From NCBI RefSeq assembly GCF_025685685.1, contig NZ_JAGSYH010000005.1, positions 434,001 to 498,000 of the forward strand: a stretch of 64,000 nucleotides of DNA. The letters are read 5' to 3'. The notes beneath the pieces are model-generated. The model saw only the letters and a list, made by a program, of their open reading frames with translations. It did no database searches and had not been told where the DNA came from. This document shows, in pieces, positions 50,220 to 61,457 of this stretch. Both the position numbers and the translations under genes were made by a program. Source of the stretch: Acidicapsa dinghuensis. Its GTDB lineage: Bacteria > Acidobacteriota > Terriglobia > Terriglobales > Acidobacteriaceae. How positions within the stretch are numbered: position 1 is the first letter of the stretch; every line of letters starts with the position of its first letter.

Positions 50220-50325
50220 GGTGCTCTTTCAAAAGACTGTCCATTCGATTGAGTCCGAGAAGCCGGTCGTGACGAGCAACCAGAAGCTTCAGATAAATCG
50301 AATGGACATGCCTGAAAATGTCGGC
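50220..50325 (+). mobile_element. Relic of an IS481-family left end
   Basis: About 90 nt align with the left end of the IS481 element at 52129 (roughly four of five bases). The match covers the terminal GTGCTCTTTCA, the inverted repeat TGTCCATTCGATT (50238-50250) with AATCGAATGGACA (50296-50308), and the first transposase codons (ATGGACATGCCTGAAAATG against ATGGACATTCATAAGAATG). Similarity ends near 50325, just before the rclC-like stop. It has the same orientation as the complete element. Confidence 0.75.
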
Positions 50326-50339
50326 CCGAGCCTCCACAG

Positions 50340-50879
50340 TTAGCGTTTGTTTTCGGAAACCGCCTTTTTGCCGAAATAGCTGACCAGGTAAAGACATCCA
50401 CCAAGAGCAATGATGTCCTTGTACAGGAACAGGCCAAGGAAGCTCATATATCTCATTCCCTCAATGCCAGGTACGGAAATAATCGCGCCGGGAGTACTCA
50501 GCAGCATGGTGCTGGTTGTGAAGAAGATAACGACTCCTAGGAGCCCGCCAACAATGCCGGCCCTGGGTCTGAAGTAGCCCGCGATAATCAAGATCGCGGT
50601 AAGCCACTCGGTAGTTCCGATAAGATCCGATCCAATATACGGACCGAATAACTTGAAGTGCCACCAGACGAGAAAGCTGTTCGAAACAAGAGGAATGATG
50701 CCTTCAGCGCCGGGCCGCGTCATCTTGTAAGATCCGGCCCAAAGCAGCATAACGATCATACCGATGCTGATAACCAGAAAGGGTAGATTACGATCACTGA
50801 TCCACTCAGCCAATCCGGTCAGTTTGTTTTTCGCTTGTTGTAAGAGGTTGCTTGTTTGTGCCGACGAGATGTTACTCAT
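50340..50879 (-). CDS. RclC/YkgB-like (DUF417) inner membrane protein
   Basis: This 179-residue protein has four hydrophobic helices: LPFLVISIGMIVMLLWAGSY, TEWLTAILIIAGYF, GIVGGLLGVVIFFTTSTMLL and FLYKDIIALGGCLYLVSYFG. It also has the DUF417 motifs WAGSYKMTRPGAEGIIPLVSNS and LYKDII. In Escherichia coli the family member RclC belongs to the reactive-chlorine resistance regulon controlled by RclR. Here the gene is divergent from an rclR-like AraC gene with 200 nt between the starts, the same regulator-target pairing. Its biochemical role is not known. Confidence 0.83.
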   Translation of the reverse strand: MSNISSAQTSNLLQQAKNKLTGLAEWISDRNLPFLVISIGMIVMLLWAGSYKMTRPGAEGIIPLVSNSFLVWWHFKLFGPYIGSDLIGTTEWLTAILIIAGYFRPRAGIVGGLLGVVIFFTTSTMLLSTPGAIISVPGIEGMRYMSFLGLFLYKDIIALGGCLYLVSYFGKKAVSENKR

Positions 50880-52128: not shown

Positions 52129-53167
52129 CTGTGATCTTTCAGGAGGTTGTCCATTCGATTTGGACCGGAGAAGCTGGTTGTGACGAGCAACTAGGAATCT
52201 TCGGAGGATCGAATGGACATTCATAAGAATGCCCGACTGAGCTATCGCAGTCGAGAGGCATTGGTCAGGTTTGTACTGGAGCAGGGAGAGACGCGGAAGG
52301 CGGCTGCAGCCGCCTTCCGCGTGAGTGCGAAGACTGCGGCCAAGTGGGTGATGCGGTTCCAGGTAGCCGGACTGGATGGTCTGGCAGATCGTAGCTCGCG
52401 GCCTCATCGCAGTCCGCGCCGCCTGGCGGGGAGTCTTGTTGATCGGGTTGTCGAGCTGCGCCGGGGGCACATGCCCGGGTACCGGATCGCACGGCAATCG
52501 GGTCTGAGTCCGGCTTCCGTGAGCCGCATCCTGCGCCGGGCGCGGTTGAGCCGATGGCGCGACCTGAACCCGCCGCCTCCCGTGGTTCGCTATGAGCATC
52601 CGCGGCCCGGTGACCTGTTGCATCTCGACATCAAGGGCATGACGCGCTTCTCGGAGGTCTCGCTGCGCGGCGATGGGCGGCTGCGCGGCAAACGCGCTCA
52701 TCCCGGTTTCCTTGCGCTGCATGTGGCCGTCGACGACCACTCGCGTATGGCCTTCACCCGCATGCTGCCAGACCAGAAGGCCGGTACCACCATCGGCTTC
52801 CTCAACGATGCGCTGGGCTTCTTCGCACAACACGGCATCGGCGTGCGCGCTCTGCTGACCGACAACGGATCCAGCTACCGCTCCCAACAGTTCCGCCAGG
52901 CTTGCTGCAAGCTCGCACTAAAACACCACCGCACCAGGCCCTACACGCCCAGAACCAACGGAAAGGCTGAGCGATTTATACAGACCGCGCTCAGAGAGTG
53001 GGCTTACGCAAAACACTGGACTGACTCACAGGACAGGGACTCACATCTGCAGCCATGGACTCACTACTACAACCACGAAAGACCTCATGGTAGCCTCAAC
53101 TACAACCCGCCCATCAGCCGCTCCGAGATACCGCTCGCCGATGGAACAACCTCTTGAGCTTCTACAG
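52129..53167 (+). mobile_element. IS481-family insertion sequence, apparently complete
   Basis: The element is about 1.04 kb. Imperfect terminal inverted repeats begin CTGT at both ends; the inner parts TCAGGAGGTTGT (left, 52139-52150) and TCAAGAGGTTGT (right, read inward) match at 11 of 12 positions. Flanking CCAC at 52125-52128 and 53168-53171 is a possible 4-bp target duplication. One intact transposase gene fills the interior. The right end lies only 9 nt from the stop codon of the ankyrin-like gene. Confidence 0.75.
52213..53157 (+). CDS. IS481-family transposase
   Basis: This 314-residue DDE transposase has an N-terminal helix-turn-helix (about 10-60: RLSYRSREALVRFVLEQGET, AAAFRVSAKTAAKWVMRF) and an rve catalytic core. 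The triad is in LLHLDIKGM (Asp), LLTDNGSSYRS (Asp) and TNGKAERFIQT (Glu). The C-terminal YYNHERPHGSLNYNPP is the usual integrase-core ending. The frame is intact, so the element may be active. The start codon lies inside the right arm of the inverted repeat 52148-52159 / 52208-52219, which could fold in the mRNA and limit translation. Confidence 0.93.
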   Translation: MDIHKNARLSYRSREALVRFVLEQGETRKAAAAAFRVSAKTAAKWVMRFQVAGLDGLADRSSRPHRSPRRLAGSLVDRVVELRRGHMPGYRIARQSGLSPASVSRILRRARLSRWRDLNPPPPVVRYEHPRPGDLLHLDIKGMTRFSEVSLRGDGRLRGKRAHPGFLALHVAVDDHSRMAFTRMLPDQKAGTTIGFLNDALGFFAQHGIGVRALLTDNGSSYRSQQFRQACCKLALKHHRTRPYTPRTNGKAERFIQTALREWAYAKHWTDSQDRDSHLQPWTHYYNHERPHGSLNYNPPISRSEIPLADGTTS

Positions 53168-53175
53168 CCACCCGC

Positions 53176-55251
53176 CTATGGAACGTGGAGCAATCCGCCT
53201 TGTCTTTGCAACGCTTCCTGATATGCCTTGCTGGCCTCAGCATCCTCTTGTGCAAAGTCCGTTTTGACAGCCTTCTGCGTAGCAATGGTGTCCGGGATGT
53301 CCGTAGAAGGCTCATGGCGAAGAATCCAGCCTCCATGGTTCGTAGCGATCATTGCCGATGTCCAGCCTTCGCGCGTTTTGCGATCAGTGAAGACACCTCC
53401 GGCTTGTGAGTATGCAGTAATCTGATCGACGGTACTCTCAGCAGCAGCAATTTCAGATGTCATGCCACTGCTTGAGACGCGTGTGGTGAATCGTCCGCCG
53501 GCCTCGGAGAATGCCTTGATTGTTTCCGGATCGTCGTACGCTGCATAAATTTCCGCGGTAAGACCTGCCTTATCTTCTTGCTCGGTAAAGTGACCGCCGG
53601 CATGGGCAAAAGCACGAATGGCAGCTGGGCCATTTTCGATCACACTCATGGCTGCGGTGTTGCCAAGCGAATTCTGGTGATCCGCAAATCGTCCGCCTGC
53701 AGCGTAAAAAGCTTCGATGGCCGCCGCTCCTCGCTGCTTTCCGTCGATGAACATGTCGCCGAGTCGAAAATGAAGTTCTTGCATTCCGGGGCCAAGATCG
53801 TCAGGCCGCATGGCAACGATCAAAGCGGCTGTGTCGCCAACGTGATTCTGCTGCTCGGTAAAATGGCCGCCAGCCTCCGCAAAGGCAGCAATTGCATCGG
53901 CTCCGCTGTAGGCTGCAGCCATGGCCGCGGTATAGCCCTGTTTGTTTTGCCAATCGGTGAAGTGGCCGCCAGCCCGCGCGAAAGCCTCGATCGCTTCGGC
54001 GCCTGACGAAGCAGCGATGATTGCAGAGGTCAGATCTTGCACATTAGGTGTGTCTGTAAATCTGCCACCTTGGTGTACGAAGGCTTCGATCCCCGGAGCG
54101 CCGATCCTGGTGGCTTCATATTCGTCTTTGGGGAGATCGAAAATGAGTCCGCCCTGGCGCTTCAAGGCTGCCCGATAGGCGATCAGCACTCCAGCACTGT
54201 TCAGCTCCTCCCGCCTCGCCATATCTCCGGCGGTTAGTCCCTGGGGTGTCAGACGATTGGTGAATTTGCCACCGTATTCTGAGAAAGCTTCAACGACTTT
54301 GGCCCCGTGCAATATTGCCGTGGCTTCTGCGGTGAGGCCTTTCCTGTTGGGTCGATCATCGAACTTGCAACCGGCTTTCGCGAAGGATTCAACTGCCGCA
54401 GGACTTCGAAGGGCGCTGTATTCGTCATCCGTGCTGATGTATTCAAGGCCTCCCTGTCTTTCTACCGCCGAGTCATAGGCCTGGAGCACGCTGGCGCCTT
54501 TGCGAGCAGCCAATTGTGCTGCGGATTCTCCGAGAGAATTATTCGAAGTAAATACGTGACCAGCAGCCGCGAAAGCCTGAATGGCAGTTGCCCCTCCATT
54601 AACTGCCATAAGTTCCTGTATGTTGCTAATCGAAGAACGCAGGTCAACGTCTGGGCCGATCGCCCTACGGAATGCGCAAAGCGACGCTGGGTTCTGCATG
54701 AGCAGGACGATCGTGTTCGTACTGACCCTGCCATCCTGAAGGGCGAACCGGCCGCCGGCTTCAGCGAAAGCATCAATCGCTTTCGCACGCTCCCGGTAAT
54801 ACTGCGCGGCACCCGGGTCAGGATGTGGTTTCACCTGCAAGACATAGTCCGCCGCATTGTGTCCTGAACTATCTTTTTCCTCGGTGAACGTTCCGCCGGC
54901 CTTGCGGAATGCAGCAATGACCTCGGGTGAGCTCGCCGCGGCCAGCATGGCCGCGGTCTGTCCACCGCTGTTTTTCTGGCCAATGAATCTTCCGCCCGTT
55001 CTGGCGAACGCCTCGATCCCTGAAACGCCTCCTTCGACGGCTTTCAATTCTGCGGGATCACTGGGGGACTGTGAATGACCTCCAAGCGAAGCAAGAGAAA
55101 GGACTGTAATAAAGGACACCTTGTGAATAAGGTATTTCAACGCATGGGATGGGTCACAATTAGGAACGGCGTCAGACCGCCCTTGCCCTCCAGTCCGGCT
55201 TCGACACAGCAGTGCTACCCATGAAGCAACTACCTTGCGCATGAAAGCCAT
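53176..55251 (-). CDS. Large ankyrin-like repeat protein, probably secreted
   Basis: This protein of up to 691 residues is built of about 15 degenerate units of 32-37 residues with the pattern AIEAFxxAGGxFTxxQNxxGxTAAMxAA. They resemble ankyrin repeats in length and helix layout but have a distinctive AGGxFT turn. A second module, AYxxAxxRQGGLxxxxxxDEYxA, occurs twice in full and a third time ends at the stop (ALQRQGGLLHVP). A signal-like segment (KYLIHKVSFITVLSLASLGG) lies at about 39-58, so the true start may be a TTG at 55140. The stop is 8 nt from the IS481 end, so the C-terminus may be truncated. Confidence 0.7.
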   Translation of the reverse strand: MAFMRKVVASWVALLCRSRTGGQGRSDAVPNCDPSHALKYLIHKVSFITVLSLASLGGHSQSPSDPAELKAVEGGVSGIEAFARTGGRFIGQKNSGGQTAAMLAAASSPEVIAAFRKAGGTFTEEKDSSGHNAADYVLQVKPHPDPGAAQYYRERAKAIDAFAEAGGRFALQDGRVSTNTIVLLMQNPASLCAFRRAIGPDVDLRSSISNIQELMAVNGGATAIQAFAAAGHVFTSNNSLGESAAQLAARKGASVLQAYDSAVERQGGLEYISTDDEYSALRSPAAVESFAKAGCKFDDRPNRKGLTAEATAILHGAKVVEAFSEYGGKFTNRLTPQGLTAGDMARREELNSAGVLIAYRAALKRQGGLIFDLPKDEYEATRIGAPGIEAFVHQGGRFTDTPNVQDLTSAIIAASSGAEAIEAFARAGGHFTDWQNKQGYTAAMAAAYSGADAIAAFAEAGGHFTEQQNHVGDTAALIVAMRPDDLGPGMQELHFRLGDMFIDGKQRGAAAIEAFYAAGGRFADHQNSLGNTAAMSVIENGPAAIRAFAHAGGHFTEQEDKAGLTAEIYAAYDDPETIKAFSEAGGRFTTRVSSSGMTSEIAAAESTVDQITAYSQAGGVFTDRKTREGWTSAMIATNHGGWILRHEPSTDIPDTIATQKAVKTDFAQEDAEASKAYQEALQRQGGLLHVP

Positions 55252-55590: not shown

Positions 55591-55800
55591 AAATTCCCCA
55601 AAGGGGAATGACAGATAGAAGGGCAAAAGCAAAGACAAAAGCAAATGCAGATGCAACTGCGAAGACAGAAGCAGATCCCCTTCGGGGATGACAAACAAAA
55701 AGGCAAAGACAAGGGCAAAAACAAAGACAAGAGCAACTGCAGATGCAACTACAAAGACAAAAGCAGGTCCTTCGCTCTGCTCAGGAGGACAACGTGGCTG
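55591..55800 (+). repeat. A-rich modular intergenic repeat with short hairpins
   Basis: Short hairpins (TTCCCC-AAA-GGGGAA at 55594, ATCCCC-TTC-GGGGAT at 55675), each followed by ATGACA, alternate with low-complexity tracts of AAAGACAAAAGC type. A 28-nt direct repeat is at 55647-55674 and 55739-55766 (25 of 28 identical, G/A changes only). A degraded hairpin of this kind (GGATCCCCTTCCGGGATGAT) also precedes rsmD near 57007. Open frames across it on either strand are by-products of the composition. It fills most of the 571-nt gap between the ankyrin-like and M50-like genes. Confidence 0.65.
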
Positions 55801-55822: not shown

Positions 55823-56938
55823 TTAGTTTTCGGAGTCTAGGCGTTCGAGGCGGCGTTGTTCGGATAGTAGGGACATGCTGGTCATTAAGTTTTGGACGCT
55901 GACCATGCCTACTATGTTTTCGCCTTCGGCTACGGGGATGAGACTTAGTCCGCGGCCGGCGTTGATGCGGCGGATGATGGCTCCGAGGGTGTCGTCTGGG
56001 CGGGCTACCTGGAAGGTGCGCGACATAACTCCCTGGATGTAGCCGTTGCCTTCGATGCGGAGCTGTTCGACGATGCGCTGGCGGTTGACGATGCCTACGA
56101 CTTGCCGGTTGCGGACTACGGGGAAGTCTTCCTGGAGCGAGTGGACGCAGCGGTGGAGGGCGTCGGCGAGGGTGTCGCTGGGTGAGAGGGTGGCGTAGTC
56201 GGTGAGCATGACTTCGCGCATCTGGACGGTATCGACGACGGATTGGAAGAAGACGCCCTGATCTTCGATTTGCGCGCCGATGAAGATAAAGAATCCGGCG
56301 GCGGGCAGGATGGGGTCGTGGAGGAAGAATCCGCAGAAGATGGCGGCGAGAGCGACGAGCTGGCCGAGGCCGGAGAGAGCGCGGCTGGCCGCGGAGGGCG
56401 AGTGAGCGCGTGTCCAGTTATTGCGCAGTAGGCGGCCGGCATCGAGCGGATAGGCGGGGAGCAGGTGGAGCAGGCCGAGCGCGGCCTGGAGCCAGATGAG
56501 GCTGCGGACGAGAGTGGTGGGTGAGACAAGAGGCGGGGTGAGGAGCGGGAAACTGCCGGAGGCTCCCATGGCGCCTGCGGCGAGGATTGCGGCAGTGGAG
56601 ATGTTGGCGATGGGGCCTGCGGCGGCGAGTGCGTATTGTGCGCTGCCGGAGCTGGAGCGCTCCTGGCTTTCAGGGTTGGCGTAGGCGAAGAGGCCGCCGA
56701 TGGGCAGGATGAGGATGGTGCGGAGCCGAAGACCGAGCCAGCCGGCGACGAGGAGGCGTCCGATTTCTCGGACGACGACGGCGGCGAAGACGAGCACCCA
56801 GAGGGCGAGTCCCGCGGTGGAACTGACGCCTGCGGCGTTGGCGACGAGCATGAAGACGACGGCCAGCATCACGAAGAAGGTGTGGATGCGGATTTCGACA
56901 CCCATCCAGCGGCCTAACGGGATTGACCAGCCTCGCAT
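55823..56938 (-). CDS. M50-type membrane metalloprotease homologue with CBS pair, HExxH lost
   Basis: This 371-residue protein has site-2-protease-like membrane helices (about 20-240) and two CBS domains (about 250-305 and 310-362: SPSDTLADALHRCVHSLQED, ARPDDTLGAIIRRINAGRGL). The helix that should hold HExxH reads VVVREIGRLLVAG (Arg57-Glu58-Ile-Gly-Arg61), so both zinc histidines are arginine. The second motif reads PAYPLDAGR (Asp166 kept). A zinc protease is therefore unlikely, and the protein may be a regulatory pseudoprotease. ATG 56938 is the start; the open frame further upstream is antisense to rsmD. Confidence 0.83.
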   Translation of the reverse strand: MRGWSIPLGRWMGVEIRIHTFFVMLAVVFMLVANAAGVSSTAGLALWVLVFAAVVVREIGRLLVAGWLGLRLRTILILPIGGLFAYANPESQERSSSGSAQYALAAAGPIANISTAAILAAGAMGASGSFPLLTPPLVSPTTLVRSLIWLQAALGLLHLLPAYPLDAGRLLRNNWTRAHSPSAASRALSGLGQLVALAAIFCGFFLHDPILPAAGFFIFIGAQIEDQGVFFQSVVDTVQMREVMLTDYATLSPSDTLADALHRCVHSLQEDFPVVRNRQVVGIVNRQRIVEQLRIEGNGYIQGVMSRTFQVARPDDTLGAIIRRINAGRGLSLIPVAEGENIVGMVSVQNLMTSMSLLSEQRRLERLDSEN

Positions 56939-57058
56939 ATGAGAATGATTGTATCGGGGTGAGGCGAGTGTGGTTGTGGCTATTGATACGAGGCTGCTGA
57001 GAAGCGGATCCCCTTCCGGGATGATAGACGGGAAAACCAAGACAGGAGCTGGCGGGGA

Positions 57059-57655
57059 ATGCGGGTGATTGGGGGGAAATTCCGGTCGCGGGTGCTGGCT
57101 GCTCAGGCGGGAATGGATACACGGCCGACGAGTGACCGGCTGCGAGAGACGCTGTTTAACGTGCTGACGCAGGGGGCGGTGGATCGTGTGGATGGCGGAG
57201 TGTTTCTGGATCTGTATGCGGGTTCGGGGGCGGTGGGGATTGAGGCGCTGAGCCGGGGCGCGGCGAGTGTGACGTTTGTGGAGCAAGGGGCGGCGGCGCT
57301 GCGGGTGGTGGAGAAGAATCTGGCGGGGCTGGGATTGGATGCTCGCTCGCGGCGAGAGGGTATTCGCATAGAGAAGGCTGCGGTGCTGCGGTTCCTGCGC
57401 GGCGGGTTGGAGCGTGGCGGGGTTGGACCGTTTGGGGTGATGTTTCTCGATCCGCCGTATGATGCGGCTGCCGAGTATGCCGCTGTGCTGGAATTGCTGG
57501 GCGGTGATGGGCGCGAACTGCTGGTCGAGGGAGCGCTGGTAGTGGCGGAGCATCGCGGAAAGGATGATCCGGGCGAGAGCTTTGGGGCATTGCGGCGCGT
57601 GCGTTTGCTGAAGCAGGGAGATGCTGCGTTGAGTTTCTACGAAGTAAGTGGATGA
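57059..57655 (+). CDS. rsmD: 16S rRNA (guanine(966)-N2)-methyltransferase RsmD
   Basis: This 198-residue Rossmann methyltransferase has the RsmD N-terminus (MRVIGGKFRSRVL, TRPTSDRLRETLFNVL), the SAM-binding DLYAGSG (51-57) and the catalytic DPPY (131-134). It methylates G966 of 16S rRNA. Its length is normal. GGCGGGGA lies directly before the ATG. It is divergent from the M50-like gene, 120 nt apart. Confidence 0.93.
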   Translation: MRVIGGKFRSRVLAAQAGMDTRPTSDRLRETLFNVLTQGAVDRVDGGVFLDLYAGSGAVGIEALSRGAASVTFVEQGAAALRVVEKNLAGLGLDARSRREGIRIEKAAVLRFLRGGLERGGVGPFGVMFLDPPYDAAAEYAAVLELLGGDGRELLVEGALVVAEHRGKDDPGESFGALRRVRLLKQGDAALSFYEVSG

Positions 57656-60665: not shown

Positions 60666-61367
60666 TTAGTTCATCACACTGGATTTGGTTTTCAGGTATT
60701 TGTCGAAGGGGATTTCGAAGTAAAAGAGCTCTTTGCCATCGGCGTCTTTGATGGTGTGCAGGTTGAGGATGCCGCCTTTGAGCGGGTGCTCGAGTCCGCT
60801 GAGGTCGTAGAAGAGGAAGCCGGCCTGCGTGGTGTGCGGCTCGACGACCAGGGCTTGAAACTCGAGGGCATCGAAGTCCTGCTCGATCTCTTTATTGCTG
60901 GCCTTGGGCTTTAGATGGATCGAGGGAATGGGTCCGGGCATGGGGATCTTGGAGCCTTCGCGTTCTTTGCGGGACATGAGGCGCTCGACGTCTTCGGGCT
61001 CGGCGGCCTGGATGCGGTCTCCGTTGGCGGTGACGAAGATGATGCGGGCATCGCGCAGGGAGATGGGGCGGTCGGAGTTGTTGGTCACGATAAGACGGAT
61101 GGGCAGAACGCCGTGGGAGATGTAGTCGACGCGGAAGAGCTCCATCTTCTCTTTGGTGTCGTAGGGCTCGGCGGCGATGGCGACCTTTTCGTCTTTGTGG
61201 ACCTCGACGGCGGCGAAGTCAGTGGCGGGCTGTACGCGCGGCGGGTTGTGATCGCTGGCAATGGCCGGTGGCGAGAGCAAGGCGGTGAGTAGTGCAAATC
61301 CGGCAACCTGCCTGAGGAACGGTCTGGCGTAGCTGGCGGCGAAAGCGGCAATCCCAGTCTTAAACAT
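60666..61367 (-). CDS. Hypothetical exported protein
   Basis: This 233-residue protein has an export signal (about 20-36: QVAGFALLTALLSPPAIASD) and a beta-sandwich-like domain with LPIRLIVTNNSDRPISLRDA and VVEPHTTQAGFLFYDLSGLE. That pattern is like extracytoplasmic structural or chaperone-type folds. I recognise no named family. ATG 61367 has GAGG six bases upstream and is preferred over ATG 61409. It is divergent from waaA, 90 nt apart. Confidence 0.65.
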   Translation of the reverse strand: MFKTGIAAFAASYARPFLRQVAGFALLTALLSPPAIASDHNPPRVQPATDFAAVEVHKDEKVAIAAEPYDTKEKMELFRVDYISHGVLPIRLIVTNNSDRPISLRDARIIFVTANGDRIQAAEPEDVERLMSRKEREGSKIPMPGPIPSIHLKPKASNKEIEQDFDALEFQALVVEPHTTQAGFLFYDLSGLEHPLKGGILNLHTIKDADGKELFYFEIPFDKYLKTKSSVMN

Positions 61368-61457
61368 GAGAGTCCTCGCGGGGATGCGGGTTGATGCGCT
61401 GGTACTCAACGTTATGATTGCAGAGGTTAGACAGCGGACTCAGCGAATCCGTCACGC

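What the first reader, a model, noticed from the sequence alone, without database searches (positions are those of the whole stretch)
55823..56938. M50 site-2-protease homologue with REIGR in place of HExxH
Both zinc histidines are arginine while the fold, the PLDAGR motif and paired CBS domains are kept. This points to a membrane pseudoprotease with nucleotide-sensing CBS domains, a possible regulator of an active M50 enzyme.
Basis: partly seen in the sequence, partly recalled or inferred. Interest (0 to 1): 0.63.

Follow-up and report, generated by a model that had tools for sequence, protein, structure and literature searches.

The report
Membrane protease made zinc-less by arginines
A bacterial membrane protease was disabled when both of the histidines that hold its zinc became arginines, and a whole lineage of Acidobacteria has since kept the disabled version letter-perfect at that spot, so it very probably does a useful job that is not cutting proteins.

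Summary
Window 56938..55823 (-) encodes a 371-aa M50 site-2-protease homologue with paired CBS domains, REIGR in place of HExxH, and PLDAGR kept. It is not a lone mutant. In 133 distinct orthologues from 19 family genera plus MAGs, both arginines are invariant, with 6 and 5 different Arg codons. The Glu and third-ligand Asp are nearly invariant. The RExxR clade is monophyletic (100/100) and nested among HExxH orthologues at the same divergent-rsmD locus, so the protease was converted in place, not duplicated. R57 and R61 are the only two positions fixed for different residues in the two groups. dN/dS is about 0.1. AlphaFold (pLDDT 92.5) keeps the S2P fold. Other orthologues at this locus lost the site in other ways (QExxR+Asp→Ala, HQLML, HELVQ).

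The window genome has no active M50-CBS paralogue to regulate, and both CBS domains lack the nucleotide-contacting Asp. A new lead is that rsmI (16S rRNA methyltransferase) lies directly downstream in most RExxR loci but almost never in HExxH ones, and not in the window genome itself.

Best reading: a constrained bacterial pseudo-S2P. The Arg/Glu/Asp ion-pair model and the client-binding role are inference.

The parts
55823..56938 (-). RExxR M50-CBS pseudoprotease gene, 371 aa (P0001)
   Evidence: translation; Pfam; AlphaFold pLDDT 92.5
56756..56770 (-). REIGR (residues 57-61) at the HExxH position; both zinc His replaced by Arg
   Evidence: invariant Arg in 133 orthologues; aligned to 3b4r HELGH
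56432..56449 (-). PLDAGR (residues 164-169); Asp166 = third zinc ligand of active homologues, kept
56465..56467 (-). His158, where HExxH orthologues have an almost invariant Asn of the NLLPAxPxDGG motif
   Evidence: N 98% in HExxH-f1; H 90 / N 42 / S 1 in RExxR
56060..56218 (-). CBS domain 1 (residues 241-293), without the ribose-contacting Asp (R288)
55874..56038 (-). CBS domain 2 (about residues 301-355), Asn350 in place of Asp
   Evidence: boundaries approximate
57059..57655 (+). rsmD, 16S rRNA m2G966 methyltransferase, divergent neighbour that marks the orthologous locus
   Evidence: TIGR00095 124 bits over cut-off 117.5; synteny

Best explanation
The gene encodes a site-2-protease fold that no longer binds catalytic zinc and is kept by selection for a non-proteolytic job. 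In the common ancestor of one branch of Acidobacteriaceae, the active M50-CBS enzyme at the rsmD locus was converted in place: both zinc His became Arg, while the catalytic Glu and the third-ligand Asp stayed. Inferred step: the two guanidinium groups sit where zinc sat and ion-pair with Glu58 and Asp166, so the buried site stays electrically neutral (R,R,E,D = 0, as Zn2+,E,D = 0) and the fold holds without metal. Inferred step: the retained cleft and its conserved re-entrant hairpin (LPIGG) still bind a membrane client without cutting it, as a scaffold or sequestering protein, with the CBS pair as a docking or dimerisation unit. Shown: homology, fold, loss of the ligands, single origin of RExxR, in-place orthology, strong constraint. 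Not shown: ion-pairing, client, any biochemical activity.
For: R57 and R61 are invariant in 117/117 distinct proteins, encoded by 6 and 5 Arg codons; E58 116/117; D166 115/117, and R/R stays 133/133 in the larger set. R57 and R61 are the only positions fixed for different residues in the RExxR and rsmD-linked HExxH groups. RExxR is one clade, 100/100, on a 0.67 branch, with motif columns left out of the tree. rsmD is divergent within about 400 bp in 124 RExxR and 49 HExxH copies. Median dN/dS is 0.115 over 568 RExxR pairs of at least 80% identity, max 0.27, against 0.097 in HExxH. 89 of 90 family genomes keep the gene. AlphaFold pLDDT is 92.5 and the best PDB match is mjS2P 3b4r. The active-site Asn is released to His in 90 of 133. 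The sister clade QExxR lost Arg57 and Asp166 together, again net charge 0.
Against: No coordinates were available, so Arg-Glu-Asp contacts were not measured. Charge neutrality is not universal: two g7 proteins keep R,E,R without the Asp (+1), three g9 proteins are REVGH (-1), and the single HQLML and HELVQ proteins are not balanced. Covariation of 57 with 166 rests on one event. No client or phenotype is known. Activity with another metal is not formally excluded.
Confidence: 0.7

Rival explanations
1. Regulator of an active M50 protease in the same cell (iRhom-like): it competes for or presents substrates, or hetero-oligomerises with one of the six active M50s.
For: Six other M50 genes with HExxH occur in the genome; the substrate-side features P79 and G81 are kept; iRhoms and EGY3 are precedents.
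Against: No active M50-CBS copy exists in the own genome; a distant HExxH M50-CBS paralogue is present in only some RExxR genomes (e.g. L201, L202); the gene is the orthologue of the active enzyme rather than a duplicate of it.
Confidence: 0.2
2. A membrane accessory factor of ribosome maturation, acting with RsmI (C1402 2'-O-methyltransferase) in one operon, for instance tethering or tuning it.
For: rsmI is directly downstream on the same strand in 119 RExxR loci (a further 7 have it farther downstream, 5 lack it within the flank) and in 3/3 REVGH loci, against 1 of 82 HExxH and 0 of 2 QExxR with enough flank; many are within 60 bp or overlapping. rsmD is on the other side.
Against: Probably one ancestral rearrangement, so the correlation has few independent events; the window genome itself has rsmI on another contig, C17; rsmI and rsmD are housekeeping genes, so the adjacency may only mean co-transcription.
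Confidence: 0.15
3. Slow decay: an enzyme no longer needed that drifts towards a pseudogene.
For: A few lineages also lost the Asp, the Gly-Arg or the Glu (L166, L193, L278).
Against: dN/dS about 0.1, invariant R57/R61 with many codons, intact ORFs in all the genera.
Confidence: 0.04
4. Sequencing error or lone mutant.
For: None found.
Against: 133 orthologues, many genomes, including the titled strain Occallatibacter savannae AB23 (L018).
Confidence: 0.005

Closest known systems
Methanocaldococcus jannaschii S2P (MJ0392, PDB 3b4r), M50-CBS site-2 proteases
   Same: Same fold and domain order; E 1.3e-16 for P0001 alone, 2.4e-60 for the profile; top Foldseek hit, TMt 0.78
   Different: mjS2P has HELGH and PMDGGR; here REIGR and PLDAGR, and the motif Asn is His
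SpoIVFB (B. subtilis; 8vjl, 8vjm)
   Same: M50 core plus C-terminal CBS; zinc ligands H43, H47, D137 (PMC11486902); structural match
   Different: Active; one CBS domain; linked to sigma-K and sporulation
EGY3, plant chloroplast S2P pseudoprotease
   Same: S2P homologue without HExxH, non-proteolytic, said to stabilise other chloroplast proteins (PMC10978774)
   Different: Plant, plastid; no CBS that I know of (memory); its replacement motif was not compared here; duplicate beside active EGY1/EGY2, not an in-place conversion
iRhoms (rhomboid pseudoproteases)
   Same: Conserved inactive intramembrane protease with a regulatory role (PMC3149277)
   Different: Unrelated serine-protease fold, animals
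A. fulgidus S2P CBS tandem (5g5r, 5g5x)
   Same: Nearest solved CBS pair of a site-2 protease
   Different: Keeps Asp in both CBS motifs and was solved with nucleotide; both Asp are absent here

Membership tests
M50 / site-2 peptidase (as active enzyme) | HExxH zinc motif | tested here: not met
   REIGR; RExxR in all 133 orthologues
M50 / site-2 peptidase (as active enzyme) | Second motif, LDG-type Asp | tested here: met
   PLDAGR, Asp166 in 115/117
M50 / site-2 peptidase (as active enzyme) | Zinc-dependent intramembrane cleavage | not testable with these tools
   Needs biochemistry
M50 homology family (PF02163) | Profile score over the curated cut-off and S2P fold | tested here: met
   39.9 vs 27.2 bits; 3b4r top fold match
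M50-CBS (class III-type) S2P | C-terminal CBS pair | tested here: met
   Two CBS stretches
M50-CBS (class III-type) S2P | Nucleotide-binding CBS motif (T/S-x-x-D) | tested here: not met
   R288 and N350 in place of Asp; binding itself not assayed
Intramembrane pseudoprotease (EGY3/iRhom type, works-like) | Catalytic residues lost yet protein conserved | tested here: met
Intramembrane pseudoprotease (EGY3/iRhom type, works-like) | Demonstrated non-proteolytic function | not testable with these tools
   Needs genetics

The most novel reading that the evidence does not exclude
A pair of arginines replaces the catalytic zinc as the charge-balancing core of an intramembrane protease fold, turning it into a metal-free membrane receptor or scaffold that in most lineages became operon-coupled to the rRNA methyltransferase RsmI.
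Probability: 0.25. Interest if true: 0.75.

Novelty: new variant of a known kind. Interest (0 to 1): 0.55.

Why it matters
My searches of the held library found no bacterial site-2 pseudoprotease; subscription papers are not held. This is a whole-clade case with a before-and-after record: active orthologues at the same locus, one main conversion, a sister clade with a different replacement, a partial reversal (REVGH) and further losses. It makes the question of what a dead intramembrane protease does testable in free-living bacteria, and predicts that the M50-CBS protein had a second, non-proteolytic function before zinc was lost.

Tried and rejected
Lone mutant or sequencing error: rejected. 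Relaxed decay: rejected on dN/dS and codon diversity. RExxR as a duplicated paralogue of an active copy: rejected by rsmD synteny. REVGH as the half-way ancestor: the tree puts it inside RExxR, so the second His looks like a return. A first regular-expression motif search was too loose and was discarded. dN/dS on distant pairs was unreliable because of saturation, so only pairs of at least 80% identity are used. Geometry of the Arg site: the predictor returns no coordinates. A genus search for g196 failed on coordinates, so HQLML and HELVQ each rest on one genome. Literature: no paper on Acidobacteria M50-CBS.

Full report
WHAT IS THERE. The ATG-started ORF at window 56938..55823 (-) encodes 371 aa with Pfam M50 (39.9 bits) and two CBS stretches. 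The zinc motif reads REIGR at residues 57-61 and the second motif PLDAGR at 164-169. A pairwise alignment to M. jannaschii S2P (3b4r) puts REIGR on its HELGH and PLDAGR on its PMDGGR. The AlphaFold model has mean pLDDT 92.5 (97-98 around the motif), and 3b4r is the best PDB fold match. An HExxH orthologue (L158) gives the same architecture.

IT IS A CLADE, NOT A MUTANT. All 15 genomes of the genus and a broad set of relatives carry RExxR. In a first set of 117 distinct proteins both Arg are invariant, encoded by 6 and 5 different codons; E58 is 116/117 and D166 115/117. In the enlarged set it is 133/133. By genus code within the family, 19 genera are RExxR (one of them, g9, with some REVGH members), about 38 are HExxH, and three single genera are QExxR, HQLML and HELVQ. 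Retention is near total: 89 of 90 sampled family genomes have the gene.

IN-PLACE CONVERSION. rsmD (TIGR00095) is divergent, within about 400 bp of the start, in 124 RExxR and 49 HExxH copies of the family, and absent at the more distant HExxH homologues. The dead and active proteins are therefore orthologues at one locus. With motif columns removed, RExxR is one clade (bootstrap 100 / SH-aLRT 100; bootstrap not fully settled), nested among HExxH sequences, with QExxR/PLAAGR as probable sister (96/79) (earlier trees). REVGH (three g9 proteins) lies inside RExxR, so His61 looks like a return. In a comparison of the two groups, R57 and R61 are the only two positions fixed for different residues; the Asn of the NLLPAxPxDGG motif, 98% in HExxH, becomes His in 90 of 133. 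dN/dS for pairs of at least 80% identity is 0.115 (RExxR, 568 pairs) and 0.097 (HExxH, 7 pairs).

THE CBS PAIR. In the CBS motif the Asp of nucleotide binders is R288 and N350. The A. fulgidus S2P CBS tandem, solved with nucleotide (5g5x), has Asp at both. The CBS1 Asp is also mostly missing in the HExxH members of the family, and CBS2 has Asn in most of the class, so this loss is older than the loss of zinc. Nucleotide sensing is therefore not supported, though binding was not assayed.

PARTNERS. The own genome has six other M50 genes with HExxH-type motifs and no CBS, and no other M50-CBS copy. Some RExxR genomes do carry a distant HExxH M50-CBS paralogue (L201, L202). An unexpected association: rsmI (TIGR00096, 258 bits) lies directly downstream on the same strand in 119 RExxR loci and 3/3 REVGH loci, and farther downstream in 7 more; 5 RExxR loci lack it within the flank, among them the window's. 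It is adjacent in 1 of 82 HExxH loci with enough flank and in 0 of 2 QExxR loci. In the window genome rsmI is on contig C17, with an ankyrin-repeat gene and an IS481 transposase downstream instead. This is probably one ancestral rearrangement, so it is a lead and not a proof.

MECHANISM. Arginine is a very poor zinc ligand (general knowledge), so loss of both His ligands should abolish the catalytic site. The retained Glu and Asp with two Arg give net charge 0 (130 RERD and 1 RDRD), and the QExxR sister lost Arg57 and Asp166 together, again 0. I infer an Arg/Glu/Asp ion-pair core in place of zinc, and a cleft that binds clients without cutting. Exceptions are L166 and L193 (+1), REVGH (-1), and the single HQLML (-1) and HELVQ (-2) proteins. 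Several separate losses at the same locus suggest that the ancestral protein already had a non-proteolytic role. The motif changes, orthology and constraint are shown; ion pairs, client and role are inferred.

COMPARISON. It is a homologue of M50-CBS S2P but fails the defining HExxH, so it should not be filed as an M50 peptidase. It works like known intramembrane pseudoproteases: EGY3 (S2P-type, plant; PMC10978774) and iRhoms (PMC3149277). The differences are the bacterial host, the in-place conversion and the strictly conserved Arg pair. In the held library I found no bacterial precedent; subscription papers are not held, so novelty is provisional.

Noticed in passing
L039:7117-8040 and 118 other RExxR loci: rsmI directly downstream and often overlapping the RExxR gene, almost never next to HExxH orthologues; rRNA methyltransferase genes rsmD and rsmI then flank the pseudoprotease.
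   Followed up: partly
L260, L266 (g222); L278 (g196); L279 (g195); L163, L164, L190 (g9); L166, L193 (g7): Other departures at the same locus: QExxR with PLAAGR, HQLML, HELVQ, REVGH, and loss of the LDxG Asp.
   Followed up: partly
L260, L266: In the QExxR sister lineage the gene directly downstream looks like an alanine racemase (alr) instead of rsmI (identified by eye from its sequence).
   Followed up: no
window 55674-55691 and 57007-57024: Palindromic GATCCCCTTCGGGGATGA element on both sides of the gene; 51 copies with up to 2 mismatches in the genome and none for the reversed control pattern: a REP-like repeat.
   Followed up: partly
window 53176-55251 (-): 691-aa ankyrin-type repeat protein (Pfam Ank_2 47.6 bits) with many EAFAxAGGxFT repeats, in the place where rsmI usually lies.
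   Followed up: no
window 50221-50340 and 52131-52251; 52213-53157 (+): IS481 transposase gene and 1.9-kb-spaced direct repeats next to it, suggesting insertion activity that may have split the rsmI linkage.
   Followed up: no
window 60666-61409 (-): 247-aa predicted secreted protein conserved between rsmD and the kdtA/lpxK-like genes in same-genus genomes (L014, L090, L096), without a Pfam or NCBIfam match.
   Followed up: no
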